This document shows, one piece after another, positions 8,659 through 64,000 of a stretch of DNA of 64,000 nt. A model generated the notes under the pieces. That model did not search any database and was not told the DNA's origin. It saw nothing but the letters and a program-made list of their open reading frames with translations. Location: assembly GCA_934045905.1 (NCBI GenBank), contig OW203766.1, positions 16,610,309 through 16,674,308 on the forward strand, given 5' to 3'. The stretch comes from Leuctra nigra (Eukaryota; Arthropoda; Insecta; Plecoptera; Leuctridae). Numbering within the stretch: position 1 is the first letter of the stretch; each line of letters begins with the position of its first letter. Both the position numbers and the translations under genes were made by a program.

Positions 8659-8733
8659 GTTAGTTTTGTTTTTAACAACAGCATAATATCCTTGTAGGTC
8701 ATGATCTTACGTGAATTTTGTTTCTACTTTCAG

Positions 8734-11143: not shown

Positions 11144-11227
11144 CTCTAATGTGACTACTGTTGTCTGTTACAATGTTCTGGATCCAGATTAGGTCCGAAT
11201 CAACGTTAGGACCAAGGACGATTGACG

Positions 11228-12085: not shown

Positions 12086-12186
12086 GTGAAGTTCATGCGA
12101 TGCTCCATGATATTCCAGAGTTTCCCGCAGAATCCGTCGATACTCATCGTTCCGTTGACCACGCGGACAATGCTCAGAGGAGGATC
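12086..12186 (-). CDS. Ionotropic receptor exon (ligand-binding S1, first part)
   Basis: A 101-nt exon from acceptor cctgcag (CAG at 12189-12187) to donor gtgagt at 12085. It encodes DPPLSIV, then VNGTMSI and GFCGKLWNIMEHRMNFT. This matches the IR S1 start (E/D-P-P-F..., G...LW..L....NFT). An in-frame TGA five codons upstream of the acceptor supports the exon start. It ends in AC, and the next exon starts with A, so the NFT-S junction stays in frame. The first 23 bases of this exon (12164-12186) are also the first bases of the satellite unit. Upstream exons would lie beyond the array, outside the window. Confidence 0.82.
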
Positions 12187-15100
12187 CTGCAGGACACATC
12201 ACGTGGTTACTCTCAACCAATCACTGACAATGCTCAGAGGAGGATCCTGCAGGACACATCACGTGGTTACTCTCAACCAATCACTGACAATGCTCAGAGG
12301 AGGATCCTGCAGGACACATCACGTGGTTACTCTGGACCAATCACGGACAATGCTCAGAGGAGGATCCTGCAGGACACATCACGTGGTTACTCTAGACCAA
12401 TCACTGACAATGCTCAGAGGAGGATCCTGCAGGACACATCACGTGGTTACTCTAGACCAATCACTGACAATGCTCAGAGGAGGATCCTGCAGGACACATC
12501 ACGTGGTTACTCTAGACCAATCACTGACAATGCTCAGAGGAGGATCCTGCAGGACACATCACGTGGTTACTCTAGACCAATCACTGACAATGCTCAGAGG
12601 AGGATCCTGCAGGACACATCACGTGGTTACTCTAGACCAATCACTGACAATGCTCAGAGGAGGATCCTGCAGGACACATCACGTGGTTACTCTAGACCAA
12701 TCACTGACAATGCTCAGAGGAGGATCCTGCAGGACACATCACGTGGTTACTCTAGACCAATCACTGACAATGCTCAGAGGAGGATCCTGCAGGACACATC
12801 ACGTGGTTACTCTCAACCAATCACTGACAATGCTCAGAGGAGGATCCTGCAGGACACATCACGTGGTTACTCTAGACCAATCACTGACAATGCTCAGAGG
12901 AGGATCCTGCAGGACACATCACGTGGTTACTCTAGACTAATCACTGACAATGCTCAGAGGAGGATCCTGCAGGACACATCACGTGGTTACTCTAGACTAA
13001 TCACTGACAATGCTCAGAGGAGGATCCTGCAGGACACATCACGTGGTTACTCTCAACCAATCACTGACAATGCTCAGAGGAGGATCCTGCAGGACACATC
13101 ACGTGGTTACTCTCAACCAATCACTGACAATGCTCAGAGGAGGCTCCTGCAGGACACATCACGTGGTTACTCTCAACCAATCACTGACAATGCTCAGAGG
13201 AGGATCCTGCAGGACACATCACGTGGTTACTCTAGACCAATCACTGACAATGCTCAGAGGAGGATCCTGCAGGACACATCACGTGGTTACTCTCAACCAA
13301 TCACTGACAATGCTCAGAGGAGGATCCTGCAGGACACATCACGTGGTTACTCTAGACCAATCACTGACAATGCTCAGAGGAGGATCCTGCAGGACACATC
13401 ACGTGGTTACTCTAGACTAATCACTGACAATGCTCAGAGGAGGATCCTGCAGGACACATCACGTGGTTACTCTAGACCAATCACTGACAATGCTCAGAGG
13501 AGGATCCTGCAGGACACATCACGTGGTTACTCTCAACCAATCACTGACAATGCTCAGAGGAGGATCCTGCAGGACACATCACGTGGTTACTCTCAACCAA
13601 TCACTGACAATGCTCAGAGGAGGATCCTGCAGGACACATCACGTGGTTACTCTCAACCAATCACTGACAATGCTCAGAGGAGGATCCTGCAGGACACATC
13701 ACGTGGTTACTCTCAACCAATCACTGACAATGCTCAGAGGAGGATCCTGCAGGACACATCACGTGGTTACTCTAGACCAATCACTGACAATGCTCAGAGG
13801 AGGATCCTGCAGGACACATCACGTGGTTACTCTAGACCAATCACTGACAATGCTCAGAGGAGGATCCTGCAGGACACATCACGTGGTTACTCTCAACCAA
13901 TCACTGACAATGCTCAGAGGAGGATCCTGCAGGACACATCACGTGGTTACTCTAGACCAATCACTGACAATGCTCAGAGGAGGATCCTGCAGGACACATC
14001 ACGTGGTTACTCTAGACCAATCACTGACAATGCTCAGAGGAGGATCCTGCAGGACACATCACGTGATTACTCTAGACCAATCACTGACAATGCTCAGAGG
14101 AGGATCCTGCAGGACACATCACGTGGTTACTCTAGACTAATCACTGACAATGCTCAGAGGAGGATCCTGCAGGACACATCACGTGGTTACTCTAGACCAA
14201 TCACTGACAATGCTCAGAGGAGGATCCTGCAGGACACATCACGTGGTTACTCTAGACCAATCACTGACAATGCTCAGAGGAGGATCCTGCAGGACACATC
14301 ACGTGGTTACTCTAGACCAATCACTGACAATGCTCAGAGGAGGATCCTGCAGGACACATCACGTGGTTACTCTCAACCAATCACTGACAATGCTCAGAGG
14401 AGGATCCTGCAGGACACATCACGTGGTTACTCTAGACCAATCACTGACAATGCTCAGAGGAGGATCCTGCAGGACACATCACGTGGTTACTCTAGACCAA
14501 TCACTGACAATGCTCAGAGGAGGATCCTGCAGGACACATCACGTGGTTACTCTCAACCAATCACTGACAATGCTCAGAGGAGGATCCTGCAGGACACATC
14601 ACGTGGTTACTCTAGACCAATCACTGACAATGCTCAGAGGAGGATCCTGCAGGACACATCACGTGGTTACTCTCAACCAATCACTGACAATGCTCAGAGG
14701 AGGATCCTGCAGGACACATCACGTGGTTACTCTAGACCAATCACTGACAATGCTCAGAGGAGGATCCTGCAGGACACATCACGTGGTTACTCTAGACCAA
14801 TCACTGACAATGCTCAGAGGAGGATCCTGCAGGACACATCACGTGGTTACTCTCAACCAATCACTGACAATGCTCAGAGGAGGATCCTGCAGGACACATC
14901 ACGTGGTTACTCTAGACCAATCACTGACAATGCTCAGAGGAGGATCCTGCAGGACACATCACGTGGTTACTCTCAACCAATCACTGACAATGCTCAGAGG
15001 AGGATCCTGCAGGACACATCACGTGGTTACTCTAGACCAATCACTGACAATGCTCAGAGGAGGATCCTGCAGGACACATCACGTGGTTACTCTAGACCAA

Positions 15101-16560
15101 TCACTGACAATGCTAAGAGGAGGATCCTGCAGGACACATCACGTGATTACTCTAGACCAATCACTGACAATGCTCAGAGGAGGATCCTGCAGGACACATC
15201 ACGTGGTTACTCTCAACCAATCACTGACAATGCTCAGAGGAGGATCCTGCAGGACACATCACGTGGTTACTCTAGACCAATCACTGACAATGCTCAGAGG
15301 AGGATCCTGCAGGACACATCACGTGGTTACTCTCAACCAATCACTGACAATGCTCAGAGGAGGCTCCTGCAGGACACATCACGTGGTTACTCTCAACCAA
15401 TCACTGACAATGCTCAGAGGAGGCTCCTGCAGGACACATCACGTGGTTACTCTCAACCAATCACTGACAATGCTCAGAGGAGGCTCCTGCAGGACACATC
15501 ACGTGGTTACTCTAGACCAATCACTGACAATGCTCAGAGGAGGATCCTGCAGGACACATCACGTGGTTACTCTCAACCAATCACTGACAATGCTCAGAGG
15601 AGGATCCTGCAGGACACATCACGTGGTTACTCTAGACCAATCACTGACAATGCTCAGAGGAGGATCCTGCAGGACACATCACGTGGTTACTCTCAACCAA
15701 TCACTGACAATGCTCAGAGGAGGATCCTGCAGGACACATCACGTGGTTACTCTCAACCAATCACTGACAATGCTCAGAGGAGGCTCCTGCAGGACACATC
15801 ACGTGGTTACTCTCAACCAATCACTGACAATGCTCAGAGGAGGCTCCTGCAGGACACATCACGTGGTTACTCTCAACCAATCACTGACAATGCTCAGAGG
15901 AGGATCCTGCAGGACACATCACGTGGTTACTCTAGACCAATCACTGACAATGCTCAGAGGAGGATCCTGCAGGACACATCACGTGGTTACTCTAGACCAA
16001 TCACTGACAATGCTCAGAGGAGGATCCTGCAGGACACATCACGTGGTTACTCTCAACCAATCACTGACAATGCTCAGAGGAGGATCCTGCAGGACACATC
16101 ACGTGGTTACTCTAGACCAATCACTGACAATGCTCAGAGGAGGATCCTGCAGGACACATCACGTGGTTACTCTAGACTAATCACTGACAATGCTCAGAGG
16201 AGGATCCTGCAGGACACATCACGTGGTTACTCTAGACCAATCACTGACAATGCTCAGAGGAGGATCCTGCAGGACACATCACGTGGTTACTCTAGACCAA
16301 TCACTGACAATGCTCAGAGGAGGATCCTGCAGGACACATCACGTGGTTACTCTAGACTAATCACTGACAATGCTCAGAGGAGGATCCTGCAGGACACATC
16401 ACGTGGTTACTCTAGACCAATCACTGACAATGCTCAGAGGAGGATCCTGCAGGACACATCACGTGGTTACTCTCAACCAATCACTGACAATGCTCAGAGG
16501 AGGATCCTGCAGGACACATCACGTGGTTACTCTAGACCAATCACTGACAATGCTCAGAGG

Positions 16561-17100
16561 AGGATCCTGCAGGACACATCACGTGGTTACTCTCAACCAA
16601 TCACTGACAATGCTCAGAGGAGGATCCTGCAGGACACATCACGTGGTTACTCTCAACCAATCACTGACAATGCTCAGAGGAGGATCCTGCAGGATTCATC
16701 ACGTGGTTACTCTCAACCAATCACTGACAATGCTCAGAGGAGGATCCTGCAGGACACATCACGTGGTTACTCTAGACCAATCACTGACAATGCTCAGAGG
16801 AGGATCCTGCAGGACACATCACGTGGTTACTCTAGACCAATCACTGACAATGCTCAGAGGAGGATCCTGCAGGACACATCACGTGGTTACTCTAGACCAA
16901 TCACTGACAATGCTCAGAGGAGGCTCCTGCAGGACACATCACGTGGTTACTCTCAACCAATCACTGACAATGCTCAGAGGAGGATCCTGCAGGACACATC
17001 ACGTGGTTACTCTCAACCAATCACTGACAATGCTCAGAGGAGGATCCTGCAGGATTCATCACGTGGTTACTCTCAACCAATCACTGACAATGCTCAGAGG
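16561..17100. repeat. Higher-order repeat, 360 bp (6 units)
   Basis: The rare variant aggattcatc occurs at 16681 and again at 17041, with matching neighbours on its upstream side. Confidence 0.65.
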
Positions 17101-19080
17101 AGGATCCTGCAGGACACATCACGTGGTTACTCTAGACCAATCACTGACAATGCTCAGAGGAGGATCCTGCAGGACACATCACGTGGTTACTCTCAACCAA
17201 TCACTGACAATGCTCAGAGGAGGATCCTGCAGGACACATCACGTGGTTACTCTAGACCAATCACTGACAATGCTCAGAGGAGGATCCTGCAGGACACATC
17301 ACGTGGTTACTCTCAACCAATCACTGACAATGCTCAGAGGAGGATCCTGCAGGACACATCACGTGGTTACTCTAGACCAATCACTGACAATGCTCAGAGG
17401 AGGATCCTGCAGGACACATCACGTGGTTACTCTCAACCAATCACTGACAATGCTCAGAGGAGGATCCTGCAGGACACATCACGTGATTACTCTAGACCAA
17501 TCACTGACAATGCTCAGAGGAGGATCCTGCAGGACACATCACGTGGTTACTCTCAACCAATCACTGACAATGCTCAGAGGAGGATCCTGCAGGACACATC
17601 ACGTGGTTACTCTCAACCAATCACTGACAATGCTCAGAGGAGGATCCTGCAGGACACATCACGTGGTTACTCTAGACCAATCACTGACAATGCTCAGAGG
17701 AGGATCCTGCAGGACACATCACGTGGTTACTCTAGACCAATCACTGACAATGCTCAGAGGAGGATCCTGCAGGACACATCACGTGGTTACTCTAGACCAA
17801 TCACTGACAATGCTCAGAGGAGGATCCTGCAGGACACATCACGTGGTTACTCTAGACCAATCACTGACAATGCTCAGAGGAGGATCCTGCAGGACACATC
17901 ACGTGGTTACTCTAGACCAATCACTGACAATGCTCAGAGGAGGATCCTGCAGGACACATCACGTGGTTACTCTAGACCAATCACTGACAATGCTCAGAGG
18001 AGGATCCTGCAGGACACATCACGTGGTTACTCTAGACCAATCACTGACAATGCTCAGAGGAGGATCCTGCAGGACACATCACGTGGTTACTCTCAACCAA
18101 TCACTGACAATGCTCAGAGGAGGATCCTGCAGGACACATCACGTGGTTACTCTAGACCAATCACTGACAATGCTCAGAGGAGGATCCTGCAGGACACATC
18201 ACGTGGTTACTCTAGACCAATCACTGACAATGCTCAGAGGAGGATCCTGCAGGACACATCACGTGGTTACTCTAGACTAATCACTGACAATGCTCAGAGG
18301 AGGATCCTGCAGGACACATCACGTGGTTACTCTCAACCAATCACTGACAATGCTCAGAGGAGGATCCTGCAGGACACATCACGTGGTTACTCTCAACCAA
18401 TCACTGACAATGCTCAGAGGAGGATCCTGCAGGACACATCACGTGGTTACTCTAGACCAATCACTGACAATGCTCAGAGGAGGATCCTGCAGGACACATC
18501 ACGTGGTTACTCTAGACCAATCACTGACAATGCTCAGAGGAGGATCCTGCAGGACACATCACGTGGTTACTCTAGACCAATCACTGACAATGCTCAGAGG
18601 AGGATCCTGCAGGACACATCACGTGGTTACTCTCAACCAATCACTGACAATGCTCAGAGGAGGATCCTGCAGGACACATCACGTGGTTACTCTAGACCAA
18701 TCACTGACAATGCTCAGAGGAGGATCCTGCAGGACACATCACGTGGTTACTCTAGACCAATCACTGACAATGCTCAGAGGAGGATCCTGCAGGACACATC
18801 ACGTGGTTACTCTAGACCAATCACTGACAATGCTCAGAGGAGGATCCTGCAGGACACATCACGTGGTTACTCTAGACCAATCACTGACAATGCTCAGAGG
18901 AGGATCCTGCAGGACACATCACGTGGTTACTCTCAACCAATCACTGACAATGCTCAGAGGAGGATCCTGCAGGACACATCACGTGGTTACTCTCAACCAA
19001 TCACTGACAATGCTCAGAGGAGGATCCTGCAGGACACATCACGTGGTTACTCTCAACCAATCACTGACAATGCTCAGAGG

Positions 19081-19920
19081 AGGATCCTGCAGGACACATC
19101 ACGTGGTTACTCTAGACCAATCACTGACAATGCTCAGAGGAGGATCCTGCAGGACACATCACGTGGTTACTCTAGACCAATCACTGACAATGCTCAGAGG
19201 AGGATCCTGCAGGACACATCACGTGGTTACTCTAGACCAATCACTGACAATGCTCAGAGGAGGCTCCTGCAGGACACATCACGTGGTTACTCTCAACCAA
19301 TCACTGACAATGCTCAGAGGAGGATCCTGCAGGACACATCACGTGGTTACTCTCAACTAATCACTGACAATGCTCAGAGGAGGATCCTGCAGGACACATC
19401 ACGTGGTTACTCTAGACCAATCACTGACAATGCTCAGAGGAGGATCCTGCAGGACACATCACGTGGTTACTCTAGACCAATCACTGACAATGCTCAGAGG
19501 AGGATCCTGCAGGACACATCACGTGGTTACTCTAGACCAATCACTGACAATGCTCAGAGGAGGCTCCTGCAGGACACATCACGTGGTTACTCTCAACCAA
19601 TCACTGACAATGCTCAGAGGAGGATCCTGCAGGACACATCACGTGGTTACTCTCAACTAATCACTGACAATGCTCAGAGGAGGATCCTGCAGGACACATC
19701 ACGTGGTTACTCTAGACCAATCACTGACAATGCTCAGAGGAGGATCCTGCAGGACACATCACGTGGTTACTCTAGACCAATCACTGACAATGCTCAGAGG
19801 AGGATCCTGCAGGACACATCACGTGGTTACTCTAGACCAATCACTGACAATGCTCAGAGGAGGCTCCTGCAGGACACATCACGTGGTTACTCTCAACCAA
19901 TCACTGACAATGCTCAGAGG
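19081..19920. repeat. Higher-order repeat, 300 bp (5 units)
   Basis: The order aga, aga, aga, ctcctg-caa, caa-ctaa repeats with aggctcctgc at 19261, 19561 and 19861 and tctcaactaa at 19351 and 19651. Confidence 0.85.
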
Positions 19921-22658
19921 AGGATCCTGCAGGACACATCACGTGGTTACTCTAGACCAATCACTGACAATGCTCAGAGGAGGATCCTGCAGGACACATC
20001 ACGTGGTTACTCTCAACCAATCACTGACAATGCTCAGAGGAGGATCCTGCAGGACACATCACGTGGTTACTCTCAACCAATCACTGACAATGCTCAGAGG
20101 AGGATCCTGCAGGACACATCACGTGGTTACTCTAGACCAATCACTGACAATGCTCAGAGGAGGATCCTGCAGGACACATCACGTGGTTACTCTCAACCAA
20201 TCACTGACAATGCTCAGAGGAGGATCCTGCAGGACACATCACGTGGTTACTCTAGACCAATCACTGACAATGCTCAGAGGAGGATCCTGCAGGACACATC
20301 ACGTGGTTACTCTAGACCAATCACTGACAATGCTCAGAGGAGGATCCTGCAGGACACATCACGTGGTTACTCTCAACCAATCACTGACAATGCTCAGAGG
20401 AGGATCCTGCAGGACACATCACGTGGTTACTCTAGACCAATCACTGACAATGCTCAGAGGAGGATCCTGCAGGACACATCACGTGGTTACTCTAGACCAA
20501 TCACTGACAATGCTCAGAGGAGGATCCTGCAGGACACATCACGTGGTTACTCTAGACCAATCACTGACAATGCTCAGAGGAGGATCCTGCAGGACACATC
20601 ACGTGATTACTCTAGACCAATCACTGACAATGCTCAGAGGAGGATCCTGCAGGACACATCACGTGGTTACTCTCAACCAATCACTGACAATGCTCAGAGG
20701 AGGATCCTGCAGGACACATCACGTGGTTACTCTAGACCAATCACTGACAATGCTCAGAGGAGGATCCTGCAGGACACATCACGTGGTTACTCTCAACCAA
20801 TCACTGACAATGCTCAGAGGAGGATCCTGCAGGACACATCACGTGGTTACTCTAGACCAATCACTGACAATGCTCAGAGGAGGATCCTGCAGGACACATC
20901 ACGTGGTTACTCTCAACCAATCACTGACAATGCTCAGAGGAGGATCCTGCAGGACACATCACGTGGTTACTCTAGACCAATCACTGACAATGCTCAGAGG
21001 AGGATCCTGCAGGACACATCACGTGGTTACTCTAGACCAATCACTGACAATGCTCAGAGGAGGATCCTGCAGGACACATCACGTGGTTACTCTAGACCAA
21101 TCACTGACAATGCTCAGAGGAGGATCCTGCAGGACACATCACGTGGTTACTCTAGACCAATCACTGACAATGCTCAGAGGAGGATCCTGCAGGACACATC
21201 ACGTGGTTACTCTCAACCAATCACTGACAATGCTCAGAGGAGGATCCTGCAGGACACATCACGTGGTTACTCTCAACCAATCACTGACAATGCTCAGAGG
21301 AGGATCCTGCAGGACACATCACGTGGTTACTCTAGACCAATCACTGACAATGCTCAGAGGAGGATCCTGCAGGACACATCACGTGGTTACTCTCAACCAA
21401 TCACTGACAATGCTCAGAGGAGGATCCTGCAGGACACATCACGTGGTTACTCTCAACCAATCACTGACAATGCTCAGAGGAGGATCCTGCAGGACACATC
21501 ACGTGGTTACTCTAGACCAATCACTGACAATGCTCAGAGGAGGATCCTGCAGGACACATCACGTGGTTACTCTCAACCAATCACTGACAATGCTCAGAGG
21601 AGGATCCTGCAGGACACATCACGTGGTTACTCTAGACCAATCACTGACAATGCTCAGAGGAGGATCCTGCAGGACACATCACGTGGTTACTCTAGACCAA
21701 TCACTGACAATGCTCAGAGGAGGATCCTGCAGGACACATCACGTGGTTACTCTCAACCAATCACTGACAATGCTCAGAGGAGGATCCTGCAGGACACATC
21801 ACGTGGTTACTCTCAACCAATCACTGACAATGCTCAGAGGAGGATCCTGCAGGACACATCACGTGGTTACTCTAGACCAATCACTGACAATGCTCAGAGG
21901 AGGATCCTGCAGGACACATCACGTGGTTACTCTAGACCAATCACTGACAATGCTCAGAGGAGGATCCTGCAGGACACATCACGTGGTTACTCTCAACCAA
22001 TCACTGACAATGCTCAGAGGAGGATCCTGCAGGACACATCACGTGGTTACTCTAGACCAATCACTGACAATGCTCAGAGGAGGATCCTGCAGGACACATC
22101 ACGTGGTTACTCTCAACCAATCACTGACAATGCTCAGAGGAGGATCCTGCAGGACACATCACGTGGTTACTCTCAACCAATCACTGACAATGCTCAGAGG
22201 AGGATCCTGCAGGACACATCACGTGGTTACTCTCAACCAATCACTGACAATGCTCAGAGGAGGATCCTGCAGGACACATCACGTGGTTACTCTCAACCAA
22301 TCACTGACAATGCTCAGAGGAGGATCCTGCAGGACACATCACGTGGTTACTCTAGACCAATCACTGACAATGCTCAGAGGAGGATCCTGCAGGACACATC
22401 ACGTGGTTACTCTAGACCAATCACTGACAATGCTCAGAGGAGGATCCTGCAGGACACATCACGTGATTACTCTCAACCAATCACTGACAATGCTCAGAGG
22501 AGGATCCTGCAGGACACATCACGTGGTTACTCTAGACCAATCACTGACAATGCTCAGAGGAGGCTCCTGCAGGACACATCACGTGGTTACTCTCAACCAA
22601 TCACTGACAATGCTCAGAGGAGGATCCTGCAGGACACATCACGTGGTTACTCTAGACT

Positions 22659-22666
22659 AATCAATC
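22659..22666. other. Single 4-bp duplication in the array
   Basis: ctaatcaatcactg replaces ctaatcactg, duplicating four bases. It is the only change of length seen in nearly 52 kb. It shifts the register of everything to the right and ends the 10.6-kb open frame at 22671. Confidence 0.95.
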
Positions 22667-49380: not shown

Positions 49381-49980
49381 GAGGAGGATCCTGCAGGACA
49401 CATCACGTGGTTACTCTAGACCAATCACTGACAATGCTCAGAGGAGGATCCTGCAGGACACATCACGTGGTTACTCTAGACCAATCACTGACAATGCTCA
49501 GAGGAGGATCCTGCAGGACACATCACGTGGTTACTCTAGACCAATCACTGACAATGCTCAGAGGAGGATCCTGCAGGACACATCACGTGGTTACTCTCAA
49601 CCAATCACTGACAATGCTCAGAGGAGGATCCTGCAGGACACATCACGTGGTTACTCTGGACCAATCACTGACAATGCTCAGAGGAGGATCCTGCAGGACA
49701 CATCACGTGGTTACTCTCAACCAATCACTGACAATGCTCAGAGGAGGATCCTGCAGGACACATCACGTGGTTACTCTAGACCAATCACTGACAATGCTCA
49801 GAGGAGGATCCTGCAGGACACATCACGTGGTTACTCTAGACTTATCACTGACAATGCTCAGAGGAGGATCCTGCAGGACACATCACGTGGTTACTCTCAA
49901 CCAATCACTGACAATGCTCAGAGGAGGATCCTGCAGGACACATCACGTGGTTACTCTAGACCAATCACTGACAATGCTCA

Positions 49981-50880
49981 GAGGAGGATCCTGCAGGACA
50001 CATCACGTGGTTACTCTAGACCAATCACTGACAATGTTTAGAGGAGGATCCTGCAGGACACATCACGTGGTTACTCTAGACTAATCACTGACAATGCTCA
50101 GAGGAGGATCCTGCAGGACACATCACGTGGTTACTCTAGACCAATCACTGACAATGCTCAGAGGAGGATCCTGCAGGACACATCACGTGGTTACTCTAGA
50201 CCAATCACTGACAATGCTCAGAGGAGGATCCTGCAGGACACATCACGTGGTTACTCTAGACCAATCACTGACAATGCTCAGAGGAGGATCCTGCAGGACA
50301 CATCACGTGGTTACTCTCAACCAATCACTGACAATGCTCAGAGGAGGATCCTGCAGGACACATCACGTGGTTACTCTAGACCAATCACTGACAATGCTCA
50401 GAGGAGGATCCTGCAGGACACATCACGTGGTTACTCTAGACCAATCACTGACAATGCTCAGAGGAGGATCCTGCAGGACACATCACGTGGTTATTCTAGA
50501 CCAATCACTGACAATGCTCAGAGGAGGATCCTGCAGGACACATCACGTGGTTACTCTAGACCAATCACTGACAATGTTTAGAGGAGGATCCTGCAGGACA
50601 CATCACGTGGTTACTCTAGACTAATCACTGACAATGCTCAGAGGAGGATCCTGCAGGACACATCACGTGGTTACTCTAGACCAATCACTGACAATGCTCA
50701 GAGGAGGATCCTGCAGGACACATCACGTGGTTACTCTAGACCAATCACTGACAATGCTCAGAGGAGGATCCTGCAGGACACATCACGTGGTTACTCTAGA
50801 CCAATCACTGACAATGCTCAGAGGAGGATCCTGCAGGACACATCACGTGGTTACTCTCAACCAATCACTGACAATGCTCA
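49981..50880. repeat. Higher-order repeat, 540 bp, marked by aatgttta
   Basis: The units ending aatgttta at 50040 and 50580 are each followed by aga-ctaa and then by aga, aga, aga, caa. Confidence 0.75.
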
Positions 50881-53800
50881 GAGGAGGATCCTGCAGGACA
50901 CATCACGTGGTTACTCTAGACCAATCACTGACAATGCTCAGAGGAGGCTCCTGCAGGACACATCACGTGGTTACTCTAGACCAATCACTGACAATGCTCA
51001 GAGGAGGCTCCTGCAGGACACATCACGTGGTTACTCTAGACCAATCACTGACAATGCTCAGAGGAGGATCCTGCAGGACACATCACGTGGTTACTCTCAA
51101 CCAATCACTGACAATGCTCAGAGGAGGATCCTGCAGGACACATCACGTGGTTACTCTAGACCAATCACTGACAATGCTCAGAGGAGGATCCTGCAGGACA
51201 CATCACGTGGTTACTCTAGACCAATCACTGACAATGCTCAGAGGAGGATCCTGCAGGACACATCACGTGGTTACTCTAGACCAATCACTGACAATGCTCA
51301 GAGGAGGCTCCTGCAGGACACATCACGTGGTTACTCTAGACCAATCACTGACAATGCTCAGAGGAGGATCCTGCAGGACACATCACGTGGTTACTCTAGA
51401 CCAATCACTGACAATGCTCAGAGGAGGATCCTGCAGGACACATCACGTGGTTACTCTCAACCAATCACTGACAATGCTCAGAGGAGGATCCTGCAGGACA
51501 CATCACGTGGTTACTCTAGACCAATCACTGACAATGCTCAGAGGAGGATCCTGCAGGACACATCACGTGGTTACTCTAGACCAATCACTGACAATGCTCA
51601 GAGGAGGATCCTGCAGGACACATCACGTGGTTACTCTAGACCAATCACTGACAATGCTCAGAGGAGGATCCTGCAGGACACATCACGTGGTTACTCTAGA
51701 CCAATCACTGACAATGCTCAGAGGAGGCTCCTGCAGGACACATCACGTGGTTACTCTCAACCAATCACTGACAATGCTCAGAGGAGGATCCTGCAGGACA
51801 CATCACGTGGTTACTCTAGACCAATCACTGACAATGCTCAGAGGAGGATCCTGCAGGACACATCACGTGGTTACTCTAGACCAATCACTGACAATGCTCA
51901 GAGGAGGATCCTGCAGGACACATCACGTGGTTACTCTAGACTAATCACTGACAATGCTCAGAGGAGGATCCTGCAGGACACATCACGTGGTTACTCTAGA
52001 CCAATCACTGACAATGCTCAGAGGAGGCTCCTGCAGGACACATCACGTGGTTACTCTAGACTAATCACTGACAATGCTCAGAGGAGGATCCTGCAGGACA
52101 CATCACGTGGTTACTCTCAACCAATCACTGACAATGCTCAGAGGAGGATCCTGCAGGACACATCACGTGGTTACTCTCAACCAATCACTGACAATGCTCA
52201 GAGGAGGATCCTGCAGGACACATCACGTGGTTACTCTAGACTAATCACTGACAATGCTCAGAGGAGGATCCTGCAGGACACATCACGTGGTTACTCTCAA
52301 CCAATCACTGACAATGCTCAGAGGAGGATCCTGCAGGACACATCACGTGGTTACTCTCAACCAATCACTGACAATGCTCAGAGGAGGATCCTGCAGGACA
52401 CATCACGTGGTTACTCTCAACCAATCACTGACAATGCTCAGAGGAGGATCCTGCAGGATTCATCACGTGGTTACTCTAGACCAATCACTGACAATGCTCA
52501 GAGGAGGATCCTGCAGGACACATCACGTGGTTACTCTGGACCAATCACTGACAATGCTCAGAGGAGGATCCTGCAGGACACATCACGTGGTTACTCTAGA
52601 CCAATCACTGACAATGCTCAGAGGAGGATCCTGCAGGACACATCACGTGGTTACTCTCAACCAATCACTGACAATGCTCAGAGGAGGATCCTGCAGGACA
52701 CATCACGTGGTTACTCTCAACCAATCACTGACAATGCTCAGAGGAGGATCCTGCAGGACACATCACGTGGTTACTCTAGACCAATCACTGACAATGCTCA
52801 GAGGAGGATCCTGCAGGACACATCACGTGGTTACTCTAGACCAATCACTGACAATGCTCAGAGGAGGATCCTGCAGGACACATCACGTGGTTACTCTGGA
52901 CCAATCACTGACAATGCTCAGAGGAGGATCCTGCAGGACACATCACGTGGTTACTCTAGACCAATCACTGACAATGCTCAGAGGAGGATCCTGCAGGACA
53001 CATCACGTGGTTACTCTAGACCAATCACTGACAATGCTCAGAGGAGGATCCTGCAGGACACATCACGTGGTTACTCTGGACCAATCACTGACAATGCTCA
53101 GAGGAGGATCCTGCAGGACACATCACGTGGTTACTCTAGACCAATCACTGACAATGCTCAGAGGAGGATCCTGCAGGACACATCACGTGGTTACTCTAGA
53201 CCAATCACTGACAATGCTCAGAGGAGGATCCTGCAGGACACATCACGTGGTTACTCTAGACTAATCACTGACAATGCTCAGAGGAGGATCCTGCAGGACA
53301 CATCACGTGGTTACTCTAGACCAATCACTGACAATGCTCAGAGGAGGATCCTGCAGGACACATCACGTGGTTACTCTCAACCAATCACTGACAATGCTCA
53401 GAGGAGGATCCTGCAGGACACATCACGTGGTTACTCTAGACCAATCACTGACAATGCTCAGAGGAGGATCCTGCAGGACACATCACGTGGTTACTCTAGA
53501 CCAATCACTGACAATGCTCAGAGGAGGATCCTGCAGGACACATCACGTGGTTACTCTAGACCAATCACTGACAATGCTCAGAGGAGGATCCTGCAGGACA
53601 CATCACGTGGTTACTCTCAACCAATCACTGACAATGCTCAGAGGAGGATCCTGCAGGACACATCACGTGGTTACTCTAGACCAATCACTGACAATGCTCA
53701 GAGGAGGATCCTGCAGGACACATCACGTGGTTACTCTAGACCAATCACTGACAATGCTCAGAGGAGGATCCTGCAGGACACATCACGTGGTTACTCTCAA

Positions 53801-55080
53801 CCAATCACTGACAATGCTCAGAGGAGGATCCTGCAGGACACATCACGTGGTTACTCTAGACCAATCACTGACAATGCTCAGAGGAGGATCCTGCAGGACA
53901 CATCACGTGGTTACTCTAGACTAATCACTGACAATGCTCAGAGGAGGATCCTGCAGGACACATCACGTGGTTACTCTAGACCAATCACTGACAATGCTCA
54001 GAGGAGGATCCTGCAGGACACATCACGTGGTTACTCTAGACCAATCACTGACAATGCTCAGAGGAGGATCCTGCAGGACACATCACGTGGTTACTCTAGA
54101 CCAATCACTGACAATGCTCAGAGGAGGATCCTGCAGGACACATCACGTGGTTACTCTCAACCAATCACTGACAATGCTCAGAGGAGGATCCTGCAGGACA
54201 CATCACGTGGTTACTCTCAACCAATCACTGACAATGCTCAGAGGAGGATCCTGCAGGACACATCACGTGGTTACTCTAGACCAATCACTGACAATGCTCA
54301 GAGGAGGATCCTGCAGGACACATCACGTGGTTACTCTCAACCAATCACTGACAATGCTCAGAGGAGGATCCTGCAGGACACATCACGTGGTTACTCTCAA
54401 CCAATCACTGACAATGCTCAGAGGAGGATCCTGCAGGACACATCACGTGGTTACTCTAGACCAATCACTGACAATGCTCAGAGGAGGATCCTGCAGGACA
54501 CATCACGTGGTTACTCTCAACCAATCACTGACAATGCTCAGAGGAGGATCCTGCAGGACACATCACGTGGTTACTCTAGACCAATCACTGACAATGCTCA
54601 GAGGAGGATCCTGCAGGACACATCACGTGGTTACTCTAGACCAATCACTGACAATGCTCAGAGGAGGATCCTGCAGGACACATCACGTGGTTACTCTCAA
54701 CCAATCACTGACAATGCTCAGAGGAGGATCCTGCAGGACACATCACGTGGTTACTCTAGACCAATCACTGACAATGCTCAGAGGAGGATCCTGCAGGACA
54801 CATCACGTGGTTACTCTAGACCAATCACTGACAATGCTCAGAGGAGGATCCTGCAGGACACATCACGTGGTTACTCTAGACCAATCACTGACAATGCTCA
54901 GAGGAGGATCCTGCAGGACACATCACGTGGTTACTCTCAACCAATCACTGACAATGCTCAGAGGAGGATCCTGCAGGACACATCACGTGGTTACTCTAGA
55001 CCAATCACTGACAATGCTCAGAGGAGGATCCTGCAGGACACATCACGTGGTTACTCTAGACCAATCACTGACAATGCTCA

Positions 55081-55560
55081 GAGGAGGATCCTGCAGGACA
55101 CATCACGTGGTTACTCTCAACCAATCACTGACAATGCTCAGAGGAGGATCCTGCAGGACACATCACGTGGTTACTCTCAACCAATCACTGACAATGCTCA
55201 GAGGAGGATCCTGCAGGACACATCACGTGGTTACTCTAGACCAATCACTAACAATGCTCAGAGGAGGATCCTGCAGGACACATCACGTGGTTACTCTCAA
55301 CCAATCACTGACAATGCTCAGAGGAGGATCCTGCAGGACACATCACGTGGTTACTCTCAACCAATCACTGACAATGCTCAGAGGAGGATCCTGCAGGACA
55401 CATCACGTGGTTACTCTAGACCAATCACTAACAATGCTCAGAGGAGGATCCTGCAGGACACATCACGTGGTTACTCTCAACCAATCACTGACAATGCTCA
55501 GAGGAGGATCCTGCAGGACACATCACGTGGTTACTCTCAACCAATCACTGACAATGCTCA
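55081..55560. repeat. Higher-order repeat, 180 bp (3 units)
   Basis: The order caa, caa, aga with cactaacaatg repeats, the variant lying at about 55250 and 55430, followed by another caa, caa pair. Confidence 0.75.
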
Positions 55561-57360
55561 GAGGAGGATCCTGCAGGACACATCACGTGGTTACTCTAGA
55601 CCAATCACTGACAATGCTCAGAGGAGGATCCTGCAGGACACATCACGTGGTTACTCTAGACCAATCACTGACAATGCTCAGAGGAGGATCCTGCAGGACA
55701 CATCACGTGGTTACTCTAGACCAATCACTGACAATGCTCAGAGGAGGATCCTGCAGGACACATCACGTGGTTACTCTCAACCAATCACTGACAATGCTCA
55801 GAGGAGGATCCTGCAGGACACATCACGTGATTACTCTAGACCAATCACTGACAATGCTCAGAGGAGGATCCTGCAGGACACATCACGTGGTTACTCTAGA
55901 CCAATCACTGACAATGCTCAGAGGAGGATCCTGCAGGACACATCACGTGGTTACTCTAGACCAATCACTGACAATGCTCAGAGGAGGATCCTGCAGGACA
56001 CATCACGTGGTTACTCTAGACCAATCACTGACAATGCTCAGAGGAGGATCCTGCAGGACACATCACGTGGTTATTCTAGACCAATCACTGACAATGCTCA
56101 GAGGAGGATCCTGCAGGACACATCACGTGGTTACTCTAGACCAATCACTGACAATGCTCAGAGGAGGATCCTGCAGGACACATCACGTGGTTACTCTAGA
56201 CCAATCACTGACAATGCTCAGAGGAGGATCCTGCAGGACACATCACGTGGTTACTCTAGACTAATCACTGACAATGCTCAGAGGAGGATCCTGCAGGACA
56301 CATCACGTGGTTACTCTCAACCAATCACTGACAATGCTCAGAGGAGGATCCTGCAGGACACATCACGTGGTTACTCTCAACCAATCACTGACAATGCTCA
56401 GAGGAGGCTCCTGCAGGACACATCACGTGGTTACTCTCAACCAATCACTGACAATGCTCAGAGGAGGATCCTGCAGGACACATCACGTGGTTATTCTAGA
56501 CCAATCACTGACAATGCTCAGAGGAGGATCCTGCAGGACACATCACGTGGTTACTCTAGACCAATCACTGACAATGCTCAGAGGAGGATCCTGCAGGACA
56601 CATCACGTGGTTACTCTCAACCAATCACTGACAATGCTCAGAGGAGGATCCTGCAGGACACATCACGTGGTTACTCTCAACCAATCACTGACAATGCTCA
56701 GAGGAGGATCCTGCAGGACACATCACGTGGTTATTCTAGACCAATCACTGACAATGCTCAGAGGAGGATCCTGCAGGACACATCACGTGGTTACTCTAGA
56801 CCAATCACTGACAATGCTCAGAGGAGGATCCTGCAGGACACATCACGTGGTTACTCTCAACCAATCACTGACAATGCTCAGAGGAGGATCCTGCAGGACA
56901 CATCACGTGGTTACTCTAGACCAATCACTGACAATGCTCAGAGGAGGATCCTGCAGGACACATCACGTGGTTACTCTAGACCAATCACTGACAATGCTCA
57001 GAGGAGGATCCTGCAGGACACATCACGTGGTTACTCTCAACCAATCACTGACAATGCTCAGAGGAGGATCCTGCAGGACACATCACGTGGTTACTCTAGA
57101 CCAATCACTGACAATGCTCAGAGGAGGATCCTGCAGGACACATCACGTGGTTACTCTAGACCAATCACTGACAATGCTCAGAGGAGGATCCTGCAGGACA
57201 CATCACGTGGTTACTCTAGACCAATCACTGACAATGCTCAGAGGAGGATCCTGCAGGACACATCACGTGGTTACTCTAGACCAATCACTGACAATGCTCA
57301 GAGGAGGATCCTGCAGGACACATCACGTGGTTACTCTAGACTAATCACTGACAATGCTCA

Positions 57361-59820
57361 GAGGAGGATCCTGCAGGACACATCACGTGGTTACTCTCAA
57401 CCAATCACTGACAATGCTCAGAGGAGGATCCTGCAGGACACATCACGTGGTTACTCTAGACCAATCACTGACAATGCTCAGAGGAGGATCCTGCAGGACA
57501 CATCACGTGGTTACTCTAGACCAATCACTGACAATGCTCAGAGGAGGATCCTGCAGGACACATCACGTGGTTACTCTCAACCAATCACTGACAATGCTCA
57601 GAGGAGGATCCTGCAGGACACATCACGTGGTTACTCTAGACCAATCACTGACAATGCTCAGAGGAGGATCCTGCAGGACACATCACGTGGTTACTCTCAA
57701 CCAATCACTGACAATGCTCAGAGGAGGATCCTGCAGGACACATCACGTGGTTACTCTAGACCAATCACTGACAATGCTCAGAGGAGGATCCTGCAGGACA
57801 CATCACGTGGTGACTCTAGACCAATCACTGACAATGCTCAGAGGAGGATCCTGCAGGACACATCACGTGGTTACTCTAGACCAATCACTGACAATGCTCA
57901 GAGGAGGATCCTGCAGGACACATCACGTGGTTACTCTCAACCAATCACTGACAATGCTCAGAGGAGGATCCTGCAGGACACATCACGTGGTTACTCTAGA
58001 CCAATCACTGACAATGCTCAGAGGAGGATCCTGCAGGACACATCACGTGGTTACTCTAGACCAATCACTGACAATGCTCAGAGGAGGATCCTGCAGGACA
58101 CATCACGTGGTTACTCTAGACCAATCACTGACAATGCTCAGAGGAGGATCCTGCAGGACACATCACGTGGTTACTCTAGACTAATCACTGACAATGCTCA
58201 GAGGAGGATCCTGCAGGACACATCACGTGGTTACTCTCAACCAATCACTGACAATGCTCAGAGGAGGATCCTGCAGGACACATCACGTGGTTACTCTAGA
58301 CCAATCACTGACAATGCTCAGAGGAGGATCCTGCAGGACACATCACGTGGTTACTCTAGACCAATCACTGACAATGCTCAGAGGAGGATCCTGCAGGACA
58401 CATCACGTGGTTACTCTCAACCAATCACTGACAATGCTCAGAGGAGGATCCTGCAGGACACATCACGTGGTTACTCTAGACCAATCACTGACAATGCTCA
58501 GAGGAGGATCCTGCAGGACACATCACGTGGTTACTCTCAACCAATCACTGACAATGCTCAGAGGAGGATCCTGCAGGACACATCACGTGGTTACTCTAGA
58601 CCAATCACTGACAATGCTCAGAGGAGGATCCTGCAGGACACATCACGTGGTTACTCTAGACCAATCACTGACAATGCTCAGAGGAGGATCCTGCAGGACA
58701 CATCACGTGGTTACTCTAGACCAATCACTGACAATGCTCAGAGGAGGATCCTGCAGGACACATCACGTGGTTACTCTCAACCAATCACTGACAATGCTCA
58801 GAGGAGGATCCTGCAGGACACATCACGTGGTTACTCTAGACCAATCACTGACAATGCTCAGAGGAGGATCCTGCAGGACACATCACGTGGTTACTCTAGA
58901 CCAATCACTGACAATGCTCAGAGGAGGATCCTGCAGGACACATCACGTGGTTACTCTAGACCAATCACTGACAATGCTCAGAGGAGGATCCTGCAGGACA
59001 CATCACGTGGTTACTCTAGACCAATCACTGACAATGCTCAGAGGAGGATCCTGCAGGACACATCACGTGGTTACTCTCAACCAATCACTGACAATGCTCA
59101 GAGGAGGATCCTGCAGGACACATCACGTGGTTACTCTAGACTAATCACTGACAATGCTCAGAGGAGGATCCTGCAGGACACATCACGTGGTTACTCTCAA
59201 CCAATCACTGACAATGCTCAGAGGAGGATCCTGCAGGACACATCACGTGGTTACTCTAGACCAATCACTGACAATGCTCAGAGGAGGATCCTGCAGGACA
59301 CATCACGTGGTTACTCTAGACCAATCACTGACAATGCTCAGAGGAGGATCCTGCAGGACACATCACGTGGTTACTCTCAACCAATCACTGACAATGCTCA
59401 GAGGAGGATCCTGCAGGACACATCACGTGGTTACTCTAGACCAATCACTGACAATGCTCAGAGGAGGATCCTGCAGGACACATCACGTGGTTACTCTCAA
59501 CCAATCACTGACAATGCTCAGAGGAGGATCCTGCAGGACACATCACGTGGTTACTCTAGACCAATCACTGACAATGCTCAGAGGAGGATCCTGCAGGACA
59601 CATCACGTGGTTACTCTAGACCAATCACTGACAATGCTCAGAGGAGGATCCTGCAGGACACATCACGTGGTTACTCTAGACCAATCACTGACAATGCTCA
59701 GAGGAGGATCCTGCAGGACACATCACGTGGTTACTCTAGACCAATCACTGACAATGCTCAGAGGAGGATCCTGCAGGACACATCACGTGGTTACTCTAGA
59801 CTAATCACTGACAATGCTCA
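57361..59820. repeat. Higher-order repeat, 840/960/660 bp
   Basis: Blocks starting at 57361, 58201 and 59161 open with the same nine-unit order (caa, aga, aga, caa, aga, caa, aga, aga, aga) and each closes with an aga-ctaa unit. The blocks hold 14, 16 and 11 units. Confidence 0.85.
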
Positions 59821-62800
59821 GAGGAGGATCCTGCAGGACACATCACGTGGTTACTCTCAACCAATCACTAACAATGCTCAGAGGAGGATCCTGCAGGACA
59901 CATCACGTGGTTACTCTGGACCAATCACTGACAATGCTCAGAGGAGGATCCTGCAGGACACATCACGTGGTTACTCTAGACTAATCACTGACAATGCTCA
60001 GAGGAGGATCCTGCAGGACACATCACGTGATTACTCTCAACCAATCACTGACAATGCTCAGAGGAGGATCCTGCAGGACACATCACGTGGTTACTCTCAA
60101 CCAATCACTGACAATGCTCAGAGGAGGATCCTGCAGGACACATCACGTGGTTACTCTCAACCAATCACTGACAATGCTCAGAGGAGGATCCTGCAGGACA
60201 CATCACGTGATTACTCTAGACCAATCACTGACAATGCTCAGAGGAGGATCCTGCAGGACACATCACGTGGTTACTCTCAACCAATCACTGACAATGCTCA
60301 GAGGAGGATCCTGCAGGACACATCACGTGGTTACTCTAGACCAATCACTGACAATGCTCAGAGGAGGATCCTGCAGGACACATCACGTGGTTACTCTAGA
60401 CCAATCACTGACAATGCTCAGAGGAGGATCCTGCAGGACACATCACGTGGTTACTCTAGACCAATCACTGACAATGCTCAGAGGAGGATCCTGCAGGACA
60501 CATCACGTGGTTACTCTAGACCAATCACTGACAATGCTCAGAGGAGGATCCTGCAGGACACATCACGTGGTTACTCTCAACCAATCACTGACAATGCTCA
60601 GAGGAGGATCCTGCAGGACACATCACGTGGTTACTCTCAACCAATCACTGACAATGCTCAGAGGAGGATCCTGCAGGACACATCACGTGGTTACTCTAGA
60701 CCAATCACTGACAATGCTCAGAGGAGGATCCTGCAGGACACATCACGTGGTTACTCTCAACCAATCACTGACAATGCTCAGAGGAGGATCCTGCAGGACA
60801 CATCACGTGGTTACTCTAGACCAATCACTGACAATGCTCAGAGGAGGATCCTGCAGGACACATCACGTGGTTACTCTCAACCAATCACTGACAATGCTCA
60901 GAGGAGGCTCCTGCAGGACACATCACGTGATTACTCTAGACCAATCACTGACAATGCTCAGAGGAGGATCCTGCAGGACACATCACGTGGTTACTCTCAA
61001 CCAATCACTGACAATGCTCAGAGGAGGATCCTGCAGGACACATCACGTGGTTACTCTCAACCAATCACTGACAATGCTCAGAGGAGGATCCTGCAGGACA
61101 CATCACGTGGTTACTCTAGACCAATCACTGACAATGCTCAGAGGAGGATCCTGCAGGACACATCACGTGGTTACTCTAGACCAATCACTGACAATGCTCA
61201 GAGGAGGATCCTGCAGGACACATCACGTGGTTACTCTCAACTAATCACTGACAATGCTCAGAGGAGGATCCTGCAGGACACATCACGTGGTTACTCTAGA
61301 CCAATCACTGACAATGCTCAGAGGAGGATCCTGCAGGACACATCACGTGGTTACTCTCAAATAATCACTGACAATGCTCAGAGGAGGATCCTGCAGGACA
61401 CATCACGTGGTTACTCTAGACCAATCACTGACAATGCTCAGAGGAGGATCCTGCAGGACACATCACGTGGTTACTCTAGACCAATCACTGACAATGCTCA
61501 GAGGAGGATCCTGCAGGACACATCACGTGGTTACTCTCAACCAATCACTGACAATGCTCAGAGGAGGATCCTGCAGGACACATCACGTGGTTACTCTAGA
61601 CCAATCACTGACAATGCTCAGAGGAGGATCCTGCAGGACACATCACGTGGTTACTCTAGACCAATCACTGACAATGCTCAGAGGAGGATCCTGCAGGACA
61701 CATCACGTGGTTACTCTCAACCAATCACTGACAATGCTCAGAGGAGGATCCTGCAGGACACATCACGTGGTTACTCTAGACCAATCACTGATAATGCTCA
61801 GAGGAGGATCCTGCAGGACACATCACGTGGTTACTCTCAACCAATCACTGACAATGCTCAGAGGAGGATCCTGCAGGACACATCACGTGGTTACTCTAGA
61901 CCAATCACTGACAATGCTCAGAGGAGGATCCTGCAGGACACATCACGTGGTTACTCTGGACCAATCACTGACAATGCTCAGAGGAGGATCCTGCAGGACA
62001 CATCACGTGGTTACTCTAGACCAATCACTGACAATGCTCAGAGGAGGATCCTGCAGGACACATCACGTGGTTACTCTAGACCAATCACTGACAATGCTCA
62101 GAGGAGGATCCTGCAGGACACATCACGTGGTTACTCTAGACCAATCACTGACAATGCTCAGAGGAGGATCCTGCAGGACACATCACGTGGTTACTCTCAA
62201 CCAATCACTGACAATGCTCAGAGGAGGATCCTGCAGGACACATCACGTGGTTACTCTCAACCAATCACTGACAATGCTCAGAGGAGGATCCTGCAGGACA
62301 CATCACGTGGTTACTCTCAACCAATCACTGACAATGCTCAGAGGAGGATCCTGCAGGACACATCACGTGGTCACTCTAGACCAATCACTGACAATGCTCA
62401 GAGGAGGATCCTGCAGGACACATCACGTGGTTACTCTCAACCAATCACTGACAATGCTCAGAGGAGGATCCTGCAGGACACATCACGTGGTTACTCTAGA
62501 CCAATCACTGACAATGCTCAGAGGAGGATCCTGCAGGACACATCACGTGGTTACTCTCAACCAATCACTGACAATGCTCAGAGGAGGATCCTGCAGGACA
62601 CATCACGTGGTTACTCTAGACCAATCACTGACAATGCTCAGAGGAGGATCCTGCAGGACACATCACGTGGTTACTCTAGACCAATCACTGACAATGCTCA
62701 GAGGAGGATCCTGCAGGACACATCACGTGGTTACTCTAGACCAATCACTGACAATGCTCAGAGGAGGATCCTGCAGGACACATCACGTGGTTACTCTCAA

Positions 62801-64000
62801 CCAATCACTGACAATGCTTAGAGGAGGCTCCTGCAGGACACATCACGTGGTTACTCTAGACCAATCACTGACAATGCTCAGAGGAGGATCCTGCAGGACA
62901 CATCACGTGGTTACTCTCAACCAATCACTGACAATGCTCAGAGGAGGATCCTGCAGGACACATCACGTGGTTACTCTAGACCAATCACTGACAATGCTCA
63001 GAGGAGGATCCTGCAGGACACATCAGGTGGTTACTCTCAACCAATCACTGACAATGCTCAGAGGAGGATCCTGCAGGACACATCACGTGGTTACTCTCAA
63101 CCAATCACTGACAATGCTCAGAGGAGGATCCTGCAGGACACATCACGTGGTTACTCTCAACCAATCACTGACAATGCTCAGAGGAGGATCCTGCAGGACA
63201 CATCACGTGGTTACTCTAGACCAATCACTGACAATGCTCAGAGGAGGATCCTGCAGGACACATCACGTGGTTACTCTCAACCAATCACTGACAATGCTCA
63301 GAGGAGGATCCTGCAGGACACATCACGTGGTTACTCTCAACCAATCACTGACAATGCTCAGAGGAGGATCCTGCAGGACACATCACGTGGTTACTCTAGA
63401 CCAATCACTGACAATGCTCAGAGGAGGATCCTGCAGGACACATCACGTGGTTACTCTAGACTAATCACTGACAATGCTCAGAGGAGGATCCTGCAGGACA
63501 CATCACGTGGTTACTCTAGACCAATCACTGACAATGCTCAGAGGAGGATCCTGCAGGACACATCACGTGGTTACTCTCAACCAATCACTGACAATGCTCA
63601 GAGGAGGATCCTGCAGGACACATCACGTGGTTACTCTAGACCAATCACTGACAATGCTCAGAGGAGGATCCTGCAGGACACATCACGTGGTTACTCTCAA
63701 CCAATCACTGACAATGCTCAGAGGAGGATCCTGCAGGACACATCACGTGGTTACTCTGGACCAATCACTGACAATGCTCAGAGGAGGATCCTGCAGGACA
63801 CATCACGTGATTACTCTCAACCAATCACTGACAATGCTCAGAGGAGGATCCTGCAGGACACATCACGTGGTTACTCTCAACCAATCACTGACAATGCTCA
63901 GAGGAGGATCCTGCAGGACACATCACGTGGTTACTCTAGACCAATCACTGACAATGCTCAGAGGAGGATCCTGCAGGACACATCACGTGGTTACTCTCAA

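What the first reader, a model, noticed from the sequence alone, without database searches (positions are those of the whole stretch)
12086..64000. A satellite born from a 3' splice site: about 860 decoy acceptors beside an ionotropic receptor exon
Read on the - strand, the unit contains TAAC (branch-like), cctgcag, then the first 21-23 bases of the adjacent IR exon, with the rest intronic. The array begins exactly inside that exon (12164-12186). The shared exon bases encode DPPLSIV, which fits the conserved start of the IR ligand-binding lobe, so the direction exon-to-satellite is more likely than the reverse. The pre-mRNA would present hundreds of identical acceptors before the true one; a decoy used as an exon start runs into TGA at codon 16. 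How the true acceptor is chosen, or whether the gene is silenced, is an open and unusual question.
Basis: partly seen in the sequence, partly recalled or inferred. Interest (0 to 1): 0.92.

Follow-up and report, generated by a model that had tools for sequence, protein, structure and literature searches.

The report
Satellite grown from a splice site
A 60-base piece spanning the start of a receptor-gene exon has been copied head to tail more than 1,500 times inside that gene's own intron, and smaller copies of other exon edges in the same and another gene point to a genome instability recently described in birds.

Summary
The window has 863 whole 60-bp units; in the host assembly the array runs to window coordinate 107515: 1585 units, about 95 kb, one 200-N gap. 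A whole-genome pattern search counts 1584 copies, the number found in this array alone. The unit is 39 intron bases plus the first 21 bases of exon A of an ionotropic-receptor gene (IR1). Exon-to-satellite direction is supported: a neighbouring paralogue (IR2) has the same intron, begins NPPSSVI against DPPLSIV, and its intron is 755 bases; IR1's upstream exon lies beyond the array in order, strand and phase; both array edges share one unit phase. Similar exon-edge arrays sit at exon B (x2), C (x6), D (x15), IR2 exon B (x2), and at two acceptors of an unrelated GPCR reached through a random control. This matches 'exon stuttering' of chicken dot chromosomes (PMC12954441; at most 44 copies). No RNA was seen: acceptor choice at the exon-proximal copy is inferred. 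Verdict: real, new variant of a known kind.

The parts
12166..64000 (-). 60-bp satellite array in the intron upstream of exon A (863 whole units in the window; continues to coordinate 107515 in the assembly, 1585 units, one 200-N gap at 76204-76403)
12086..12186 (-). exon A of receptor gene IR1 (101 nt, start of the ligand-binding lobe S1, DPPLSIVRVV...MNFT)
12166..12186 (-). the 21 exon bases (DPPLSIV) copied into the units; this is the source copy
12187..12225 (-). the 39 intron bases of the unit next to the exon, ending in the acceptor CTGCAG
11274..11429 (-). exon B of IR1 (156 nt), joined to A in frame
11258..11283 (-). copy of the exon B donor region used by the gene model (26-nt repeat, spacing 34)
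11224..11249 (-). second copy of the exon B donor region, 34 bases downstream; its use would read into TGA

Best explanation
The array is an extreme case of local tandem duplication of an exon edge ('exon stuttering'). Shown: the unit spans the intron-exon A border of a receptor gene with an open frame, lies in that gene's own intron between the upstream exon and exon A, is private to this place in the genome, is highly homogeneous, and has company at other exon edges of the same gene, its paralogue and an unrelated GPCR. Inferred: a first duplication of about 60 bp arose by end joining (the internal junction carries one base, A, found in neither flank), and unequal exchange or replication-based amplification then drove it to at least 1585 copies. 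It was tolerated because the exon-proximal copy keeps the whole exon. The gene is most likely spliced at that exon-proximal acceptor, because only there does an exon of normal size with a good donor follow (exon definition); decoys are followed by an in-frame stop and by weaker donor-like sites. Some transcripts are probably lost to decoy use and decay.
For: Copies. Private: 1584 in the genome, 1584 in the array. Same intron position and NPP/DPP start in IR2. Upstream exon found beyond the array: it ends at 108030 (...LVLRATNVH|GTGAGT), co-linear with IR2's (...LVLRAGAFN|GTAAGT at -21176), both phase 0 as exon A needs; the intron is 755 bases in IR2 and 95,843 in IR1 (lengths computed from those coordinates). 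Edges in phase. IR1 and IR2 open over five joined exons, 320 and 327 aa; Lig_chan 35.4 and 48.6 bits, cut-off 30.8; IR2 against iGluR chains, best E 1.6e-25. Of 18 TRF arrays around the locus 5 cover exactly one receptor splice site and end in the exon, random mean 0.41, reached in 2 of 50000; without the doubtful IR2.N 4, reached in 62 of 100000; leaving out the focal array and exon A too, 3 of 17, reached in 483 of 100000; GC-rich arrays placed on GC-rich stretches, 3 of 11, reached in 1120 of 100000. GPCR: 7tm_1 38.5 bits, cut-off 30.5, E1 acceptor x3.9 and E2 acceptor x10.5. Best donor-like site in the unit 6 of 9 matches against 8 and 7 for exons A and B; no AG|GT in the window's part of the array.
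Against: No RNA, no second individual and no second species were available, so splicing, expression and copy-number change are untested. The assembly has a 200-N gap inside the array, so its true length is unknown (that the two flanks belong to one gene is now supported). A looser count, splice sites lying inside arrays, is only 5 of 22 against 1.36 expected, reached in 852 of 20000 (made with one misplaced exon D acceptor and with IR2.N). Six likely exons of other genes, picked by eye from the right-flank candidates, carry no array at an edge. In a genome-wide protein search with IR1 (129 matches listed, 125 of 247 candidates scored) only IR1's own exon C gives a run of closely repeated hits (short edges would be missed). 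16 of 22 receptor splice sites show no nearby copy.
Confidence: 0.84

Rival explanations
1. A satellite that already existed elsewhere invaded the intron and its end overwrote or supplied the first 21 bases of the exon (satellite to exon).
For: The array edge does lie in the exon, and the Pfam profiles do not show DPPLSIV to be ancestral.
Against: Paralogue IR2 has the same intron position and NPPSSVI; genome count equals array count, 1584; both edges in the same phase; other exon edges are copied in the same way.
Confidence: 0.04
2. IR1 is a dead or silenced gene; the array grew because splicing no longer mattered, or the array itself silenced the gene by heterochromatin.
For: About 95 kb of satellite within the gene and acceptor AG kept in 1579 of 1585 units; a further 19.9-kb intron between exons B and P holding a LINE and an opposite-strand gene.
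Against: IR1 keeps an open 320-aa frame over five exons with GT-AG sites and fitting phases, and aligns along that length with IR2; Lig_chan passes its cut-off, Lig_chan-Glu_bd is 0.1 bit short for the joined piece. A recent death would leave the same picture.
Confidence: 0.3
3. The decoys are used on purpose: a regulated splicing sink that lowers or times expression of the receptor (poison acceptors with an in-frame TGA).
For: 60 is a multiple of 3 and a decoy ends at codon 16; acceptor AG kept in 1579 of 1585 units.
Against: No sign of selection on the acceptor: variable sites are 9 of 21 exon-derived and 17 of 39 intron-derived positions in the window (counted), and homogenisation explains the sameness. 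Stops follow from including intron sequence at all.
Confidence: 0.07
4. Assembly artefact: a short array inflated by the assembler.
For: A 200-N gap lies in the array.
Against: 67 distinct unit types in 1582 60-bp units, in the window without a simple period; smaller arrays at other exons show the same kind of copying.
Confidence: 0.03

Closest known systems
Exon stuttering / sequence stuttering on chicken dot chromosomes (Hron et al. 2026, PMC12954441; abstract, section 7 in both parts, part 1 of the discussion and find-passages read)
   Same: A block spanning an exon border, with part of the exon and the splice donor or acceptor, is copied in tandem into the adjacent intron; the exon stays intact; exon parts 20-187 bp there, 21 here for exon A.
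   Different: There 1-44 copies and spans of 112-23,555 bp, mostly on GC-rich bird dot chromosomes (a group of gerbil genes is mentioned as data not shown). Here at least 1585 copies over about 95 kb, highly homogeneous, in an AT-rich genome of an animal with ionotropic receptors (an insect is my inference). Some exon parts here are shorter than 20 (8 and 10 bases).
Satellite-filled gigantic introns of Drosophila Y fertility genes (PMC6508621, start of abstract in a listing; PMC11207136 and PMC12965833, find-passages)
   Same: A gene carries a large satellite array inside an intron and must be transcribed and spliced across it.
   Different: The passages seen speak of satellites and repeats in megabase introns, not of copies of the gene's own splice site.
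Laboratory duplication of splice sites in tandem (classic exon-proximity experiments of the 1980s; recalled, nothing read)
   Same: Several identical sites compete and distance and exon context decide.
   Different: Two or a few engineered copies against more than 1,500 natural ones.
Satellites arising from transposons (review PMC12628747, find-passages)
   Same: Birth of a satellite by tandem amplification of a short segment.
   Different: Source here is the border of a coding exon, and the array is still attached to it.

Membership tests
Exon stuttering (PMC12954441) | Repeated block spans an exon-intron border and carries the splice site | tested here: met
   21 exon + 39 intron bases with CTGCAG acceptor; also exons B, C, D of IR1 and B of IR2
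Exon stuttering (PMC12954441) | Copies lie in the intron next to the source exon | tested here: met
   Genome count 1584, array count 1584; array lies between upstream exon and exon A
Exon stuttering (PMC12954441) | The coding exon itself stays intact | tested here: met
   Open 320-aa frame across exons A-B-P-C-D
Exon stuttering (PMC12954441) | Extensive intron-length variation between individuals | not testable with these tools
   One assembly only; between the two paralogues the same intron is 755 and 95,843 bases
Exon stuttering (PMC12954441) | Reported range 1-44 copies, span up to 23,555 bp | tested here: not met
   1585 copies, about 95 kb; the smaller arrays (2 to 15.5 copies) lie inside the range. 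A range observed in chicken, not a definition
Exon stuttering (PMC12954441) | Link to GC-rich dot chromosomes of birds | tested here: not met
   Host contig 39.2 Mb, five sampled loci 30-41% GC; the receptor exons 50-63% GC
Satellite DNA | Long homogeneous head-to-tail array | tested here: met
Satellite DNA | Heterochromatic or centromeric setting | not testable with these tools
   no cytology or chromatin data
Ionotropic receptor (IR) of the iGluR superfamily | Split ligand-binding lobe plus ion-channel domain | tested here: met
   IR1: Lig_chan 35.4 bits (cut-off 30.8), Lig_chan-Glu_bd 29.9 (cut-off 30; 30.5 with exons A+B alone); IR2: 48.6 and 41.3
Ionotropic receptor (IR) of the iGluR superfamily | IR rather than classical iGluR (no SYTANLAAF) | tested here: inconclusive
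   SYSGVLISNLT in place of that motif, read; motif recalled, no IR profile was searched

The most novel reading that the evidence does not exclude
Exon stuttering is a general instability of this non-vertebrate genome, present in at least two gene families, and in one receptor gene it has run away into a private satellite of more than 1,500 splice acceptors while the gene stays functional, spliced at the exon-proximal copy.
Probability: 0.5. Interest if true: 0.92.

Novelty: new variant of a known kind. Interest (0 to 1): 0.86.

Why it matters
It shows a satellite at or near birth, still attached to its source, and links satellite origin to exon borders. It carries a class of instability described in birds to another animal lineage and to a copy number 36 times the published maximum (1585 against 44). 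It is also a natural limit test for splice-site choice: more than 1,500 near-identical acceptors upstream of the true one in a gene with an open frame, beside a paralogue whose same intron is 755 bases. In the one search that named the phenomenon (33 papers with at least 4 of 6 terms, 10 listed) only the avian paper, among those listed, held the words; nine other searches listed no other report that I recognised as such. The library holds only open-licence papers.

Tried and rejected
Protein database search with exons A+B: 2 candidates, none at E 0.01. Satellite translated in one open + frame (300 residues): no candidate. A 32-base exact piece of the unit in viral and prokaryote contigs: none. 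Unit and peptide letters in papers: none. Window 1-12165 against phage records: no match. RNA families in 1-13000 and tRNAs in the window: none. RNA fold of the exon edge with about two units: z -0.65, nothing special. Higher-order repeat in the window: best lag identity 0.346 at 13 units against 0.310 random (sd 0.013), no clear period. Recursive splicing: no AG|GT in the window's array, rejected. A + strand protein: a frame of up to 5226 codons is open, but two of the three + frames are open in the first units anyway and no homologue was found, so rejected. Exon D acceptor was first misplaced and corrected by phase and by IR2. IR2 exon N: its 120-bp array stays open in 9 of 9 copies tested, so it may be an in-frame exon repeat; counted, left out. 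A new IR1 P-C intron: rejected, since several other paralogue hits end or begin near residue 163. A shared TCTTGTGTCTAG before IR1 exon C and the GPCR exon: not followed. One search failed silently (no rows even for known exon pairs); it was repeated with mended options, which found the upstream exons.
Full report
WHAT IS THERE. Tandem Repeats Finder gives one array at 12166-63997, period 60, 863.8 copies. Unit by unit there are 863 whole units, 862 of them 60 bp, on average 98.3% identical to the consensus, 43 distinct types. On the - strand the unit is AGTGATTGGTCTAGAGTAACCACGTGATGTGTCCTGCAG|GATCCTCCTCTGAGCATTGTC: 39 bases that end in an acceptor, then the first 21 bases of exon A (12086-12186). 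Exon A has a GTGAGT donor, and exon B (11274-11429) joins it in frame. The two exons together match the glutamate-receptor ligand-binding lobe (PF10613, 30.5 bits, cut-off 30).

OUTSIDE THE WINDOW. The host assembly first answered (536 Mb, 144 contigs; the window is C5:16610309-16674308). Flanks of 80 and 120 kb were fetched. The array ends at window coordinate 107515, holds 1585 units (67 distinct types among 1582 units of 60 bp), keeps the acceptor AG in 1579, and has one 200-N gap at 76204-76403, so its length is a lower bound. A whole-genome pattern search (41 bases, up to 3 mismatches) counts 1584 forward and 0 reverse matches; the same count on the fetched stretch is 1584, all inside the array. 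Within this assembly the satellite is private to this intron.

DIRECTION: EXON TO SATELLITE. Better evidence came from the neighbourhood. A paralogue, IR2, lies on the same strand (exons A to D at -21932 to -43627 in window coordinates). Its exon A begins directly after AG with NPPSSVI, at the same intron position as DPPLSIV, and ends at the same donor position. IR1 continues left of the window with exons P (-8577 to -8803), C (-13865 to -14082) and D (-14623 to -14882); the phases fit, the joined frame is open for 320 codons, IR2's for 327, and the two align along their length. Lig_chan scores are 35.4 and 48.6 bits (cut-off 30.8), and IR2 matches solved iGluRs with best E 1.6e-25.

THE UPSTREAM EXON. 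A comparison of the stretch beyond the array with the stretch before IR2 exon A (with known exon pairs as positive control) finds three co-linear coding pieces: 110887 with -17046 (E 2e-8), 108429 with -20862 (6e-14) and 108179 with -21024 (2e-8). The last one ends in ...LVLRATNVH|GTGAGT at 108030 in IR1 and ...LVLRAGAFN|GTAAGT at -21176 in IR2, phase 0 in both, as exon A requires. So the array lies inside one intron of one gene. That intron is 755 bases in IR2 and 95,843 in IR1 (computed from these coordinates, 200 N included); all but about 0.5 kb of the latter is array. Both edges of the array fall at the same place in the unit: base 1 at the exon, base 59 at the far intron side, as in-situ duplication gives; for unrelated edges that is a chance of a few in sixty. 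The internal junction carries one base (A) found in neither flank. The junctions of the exon C and IR2 exon B arrays show four extra bases and a one-base overlap (read by eye), so the first duplications look like end joining (inference).

NOT ALONE. TRF on the surroundings shows arrays at other receptor exon edges: 88 bp x6 (99%) at the exon C acceptor, 32 bp x15.5 (88%; 11 copies with an exact CATAAGTAAGT donor) at the exon D donor, 133 bp x2 (98%) at the IR2 exon B acceptor, 120 bp x10.1 (97%) at a putative IR2 exon N, and, below the TRF cut, a 34-bp duplication of the exon B donor. Exact runs shared on the exon side are 21, 10, 64, 8, 61 and 39 bases for A, B, C, D, IR2.N and IR2.B. A 16-mer spanning the splice site recurs within 400 nt at 6 of 22 sites, IR2.N included; 16 show none. 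Of 18 merged arrays (period at least 25, score at least 150), 5 cover exactly one receptor splice site and end inside the exon; random placement gives a mean of 0.41 and reaches 5 in 2 of 50000. Without IR2.N, whose 'decoys' stay open in 9 of 9 copies, it is 4, reached in 62 of 100000. Without IR2.N, the focal array and exon A it is 3 of 17, reached in 483 of 100000; GC-rich arrays placed on GC-rich stretches give 3 of 11, reached in 1120 of 100000. A looser count is weaker: 5 of 22 sites inside arrays against 1.36, reached in 852 of 20000 (with a misplaced exon D acceptor and with IR2.N).

A SECOND GENE. Of 40 drawn random loci on the same contig only 5 (50 kb) could be fetched. They hold four merged arrays. 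One of them, in L033, is again an exon edge: 168 bp x3.9, acceptor plus exon, with three decoys that each end at codon 56. Its neighbourhood shows a second array, 128 bp x10.5, at the next exon's acceptor. The first exon alone had no Pfam or PDB match; the three exons joined give a 256-aa piece that matches 7tm_1 at 38.5 bits (cut-off 30.5). A genome-wide protein search returns 15 matches, all at this locus, with the repeated hits of both exons. So the process is not private to the receptor cluster. It is not everywhere either: none of six likely exons of other right-flank genes, picked by eye from the candidates, has an array at an edge, and among the 129 listed matches of IR1 across the genome (125 of 247 candidates scored) only IR1's own exon C gives a run of closely spaced repeat hits (short edges would be missed).

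HOW IT PROBABLY WORKS. Shown: location, unit anatomy, privacy, homogeneity, recurrence. Inferred: duplication by end joining, then amplification and homogenisation by unequal exchange or a replication-based route. Such duplications are tolerated because the copy next to the exon body keeps the full exon. Decoys used as exon starts or ends meet stops: codon 16 (A), 24 (C, 5 of 5 decoys), 44 (IR2 B), 56 (GPCR E1, 3 of 3), and at or one codon after the B and D donors. The true acceptor A is followed by a 101-nt exon and a donor with 8 of 9 consensus matches; the best donor-like site in the unit has 6 of 9, and there is no AG|GT for recursive splicing in the window's array. Exon definition at the proximal copy is therefore the likeliest route (my estimate about 0.6), with loss of some transcripts; silencing of the gene is the main rival (0.3).

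COMPARISON. Hron et al. 2026 (PMC12954441; abstract, section 7 and the first part of the discussion read) describe exon stuttering on chicken dot chromosomes: blocks spanning an exon border with its donor or acceptor copied into the adjacent intron, exon parts 20-187 bp, 1-44 copies, spans 112-23,555 bp. [quoted passage not shown] The small arrays here fit that description; the 60-bp array is the same kind driven to satellite scale. Fly Y-linked gigantic introns also carry satellites, but the passages seen do not speak of copied splice sites.

Noticed in passing
window 44-8658, + strand (also -1341 to 148): A gene with at least 12 similar 48-54-nt microexons encoding P-x-x-x-DD-xx-GFKKRSAGE-like repeats, with recent tandem copies (132 bp x11.3 and 311 bp x3.5); it sits in IR1's 19.9-kb B-P intron on the opposite strand. 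Pfam gave only odd matches that do not convince; KKR spacing looks like a peptide precursor (my guess).
   Followed up: partly
window 5611-7554, - strand: Two open frames of a non-LTR retrotransposon reverse transcriptase (RVT_1).
   Followed up: no
window 10768-11144: Short non-autonomous hAT-like element (family recalled): 17-nt inverted ends (94%) and an 8-base CTCTAATG on both sides read by eye; in the intron downstream of exon B.
   Followed up: no
window 9617-10065 and 11527-11808: A SINE-like sequence present twice in opposite orientation (inverted arms 79-92%).
   Followed up: no
L013 8117-9079 (window coordinates 112117-113079): GC-rich 125 bp x7.6 array with a coding-like frame on the - strand, 4.6 kb beyond the far end of the satellite and upstream of the IR1 pieces recognised; may be another exon edge, no Pfam match.
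   Followed up: partly
L027 1050-2256 (window coordinates -18950 to -17744): 120 bp x10 array open in one frame through the copies tested (40-residue repeat), either an exon-edge array or an in-frame repeated exon of IR2.
   Followed up: partly
L033 7561-8101 and window coordinates -13420 to -13864: The same 12 bases TCTTGTGTCTAG end the intron part of the repeat unit in two unrelated stuttered exons; chance or a shared cause is open.
   Followed up: no
window 12166-64000: 858 CACGTG E-boxes in the window's array, with 811 BamHI, 861 PstI/SbfI and 517 XbaI sites, so a restriction ladder would size it.
   Followed up: no
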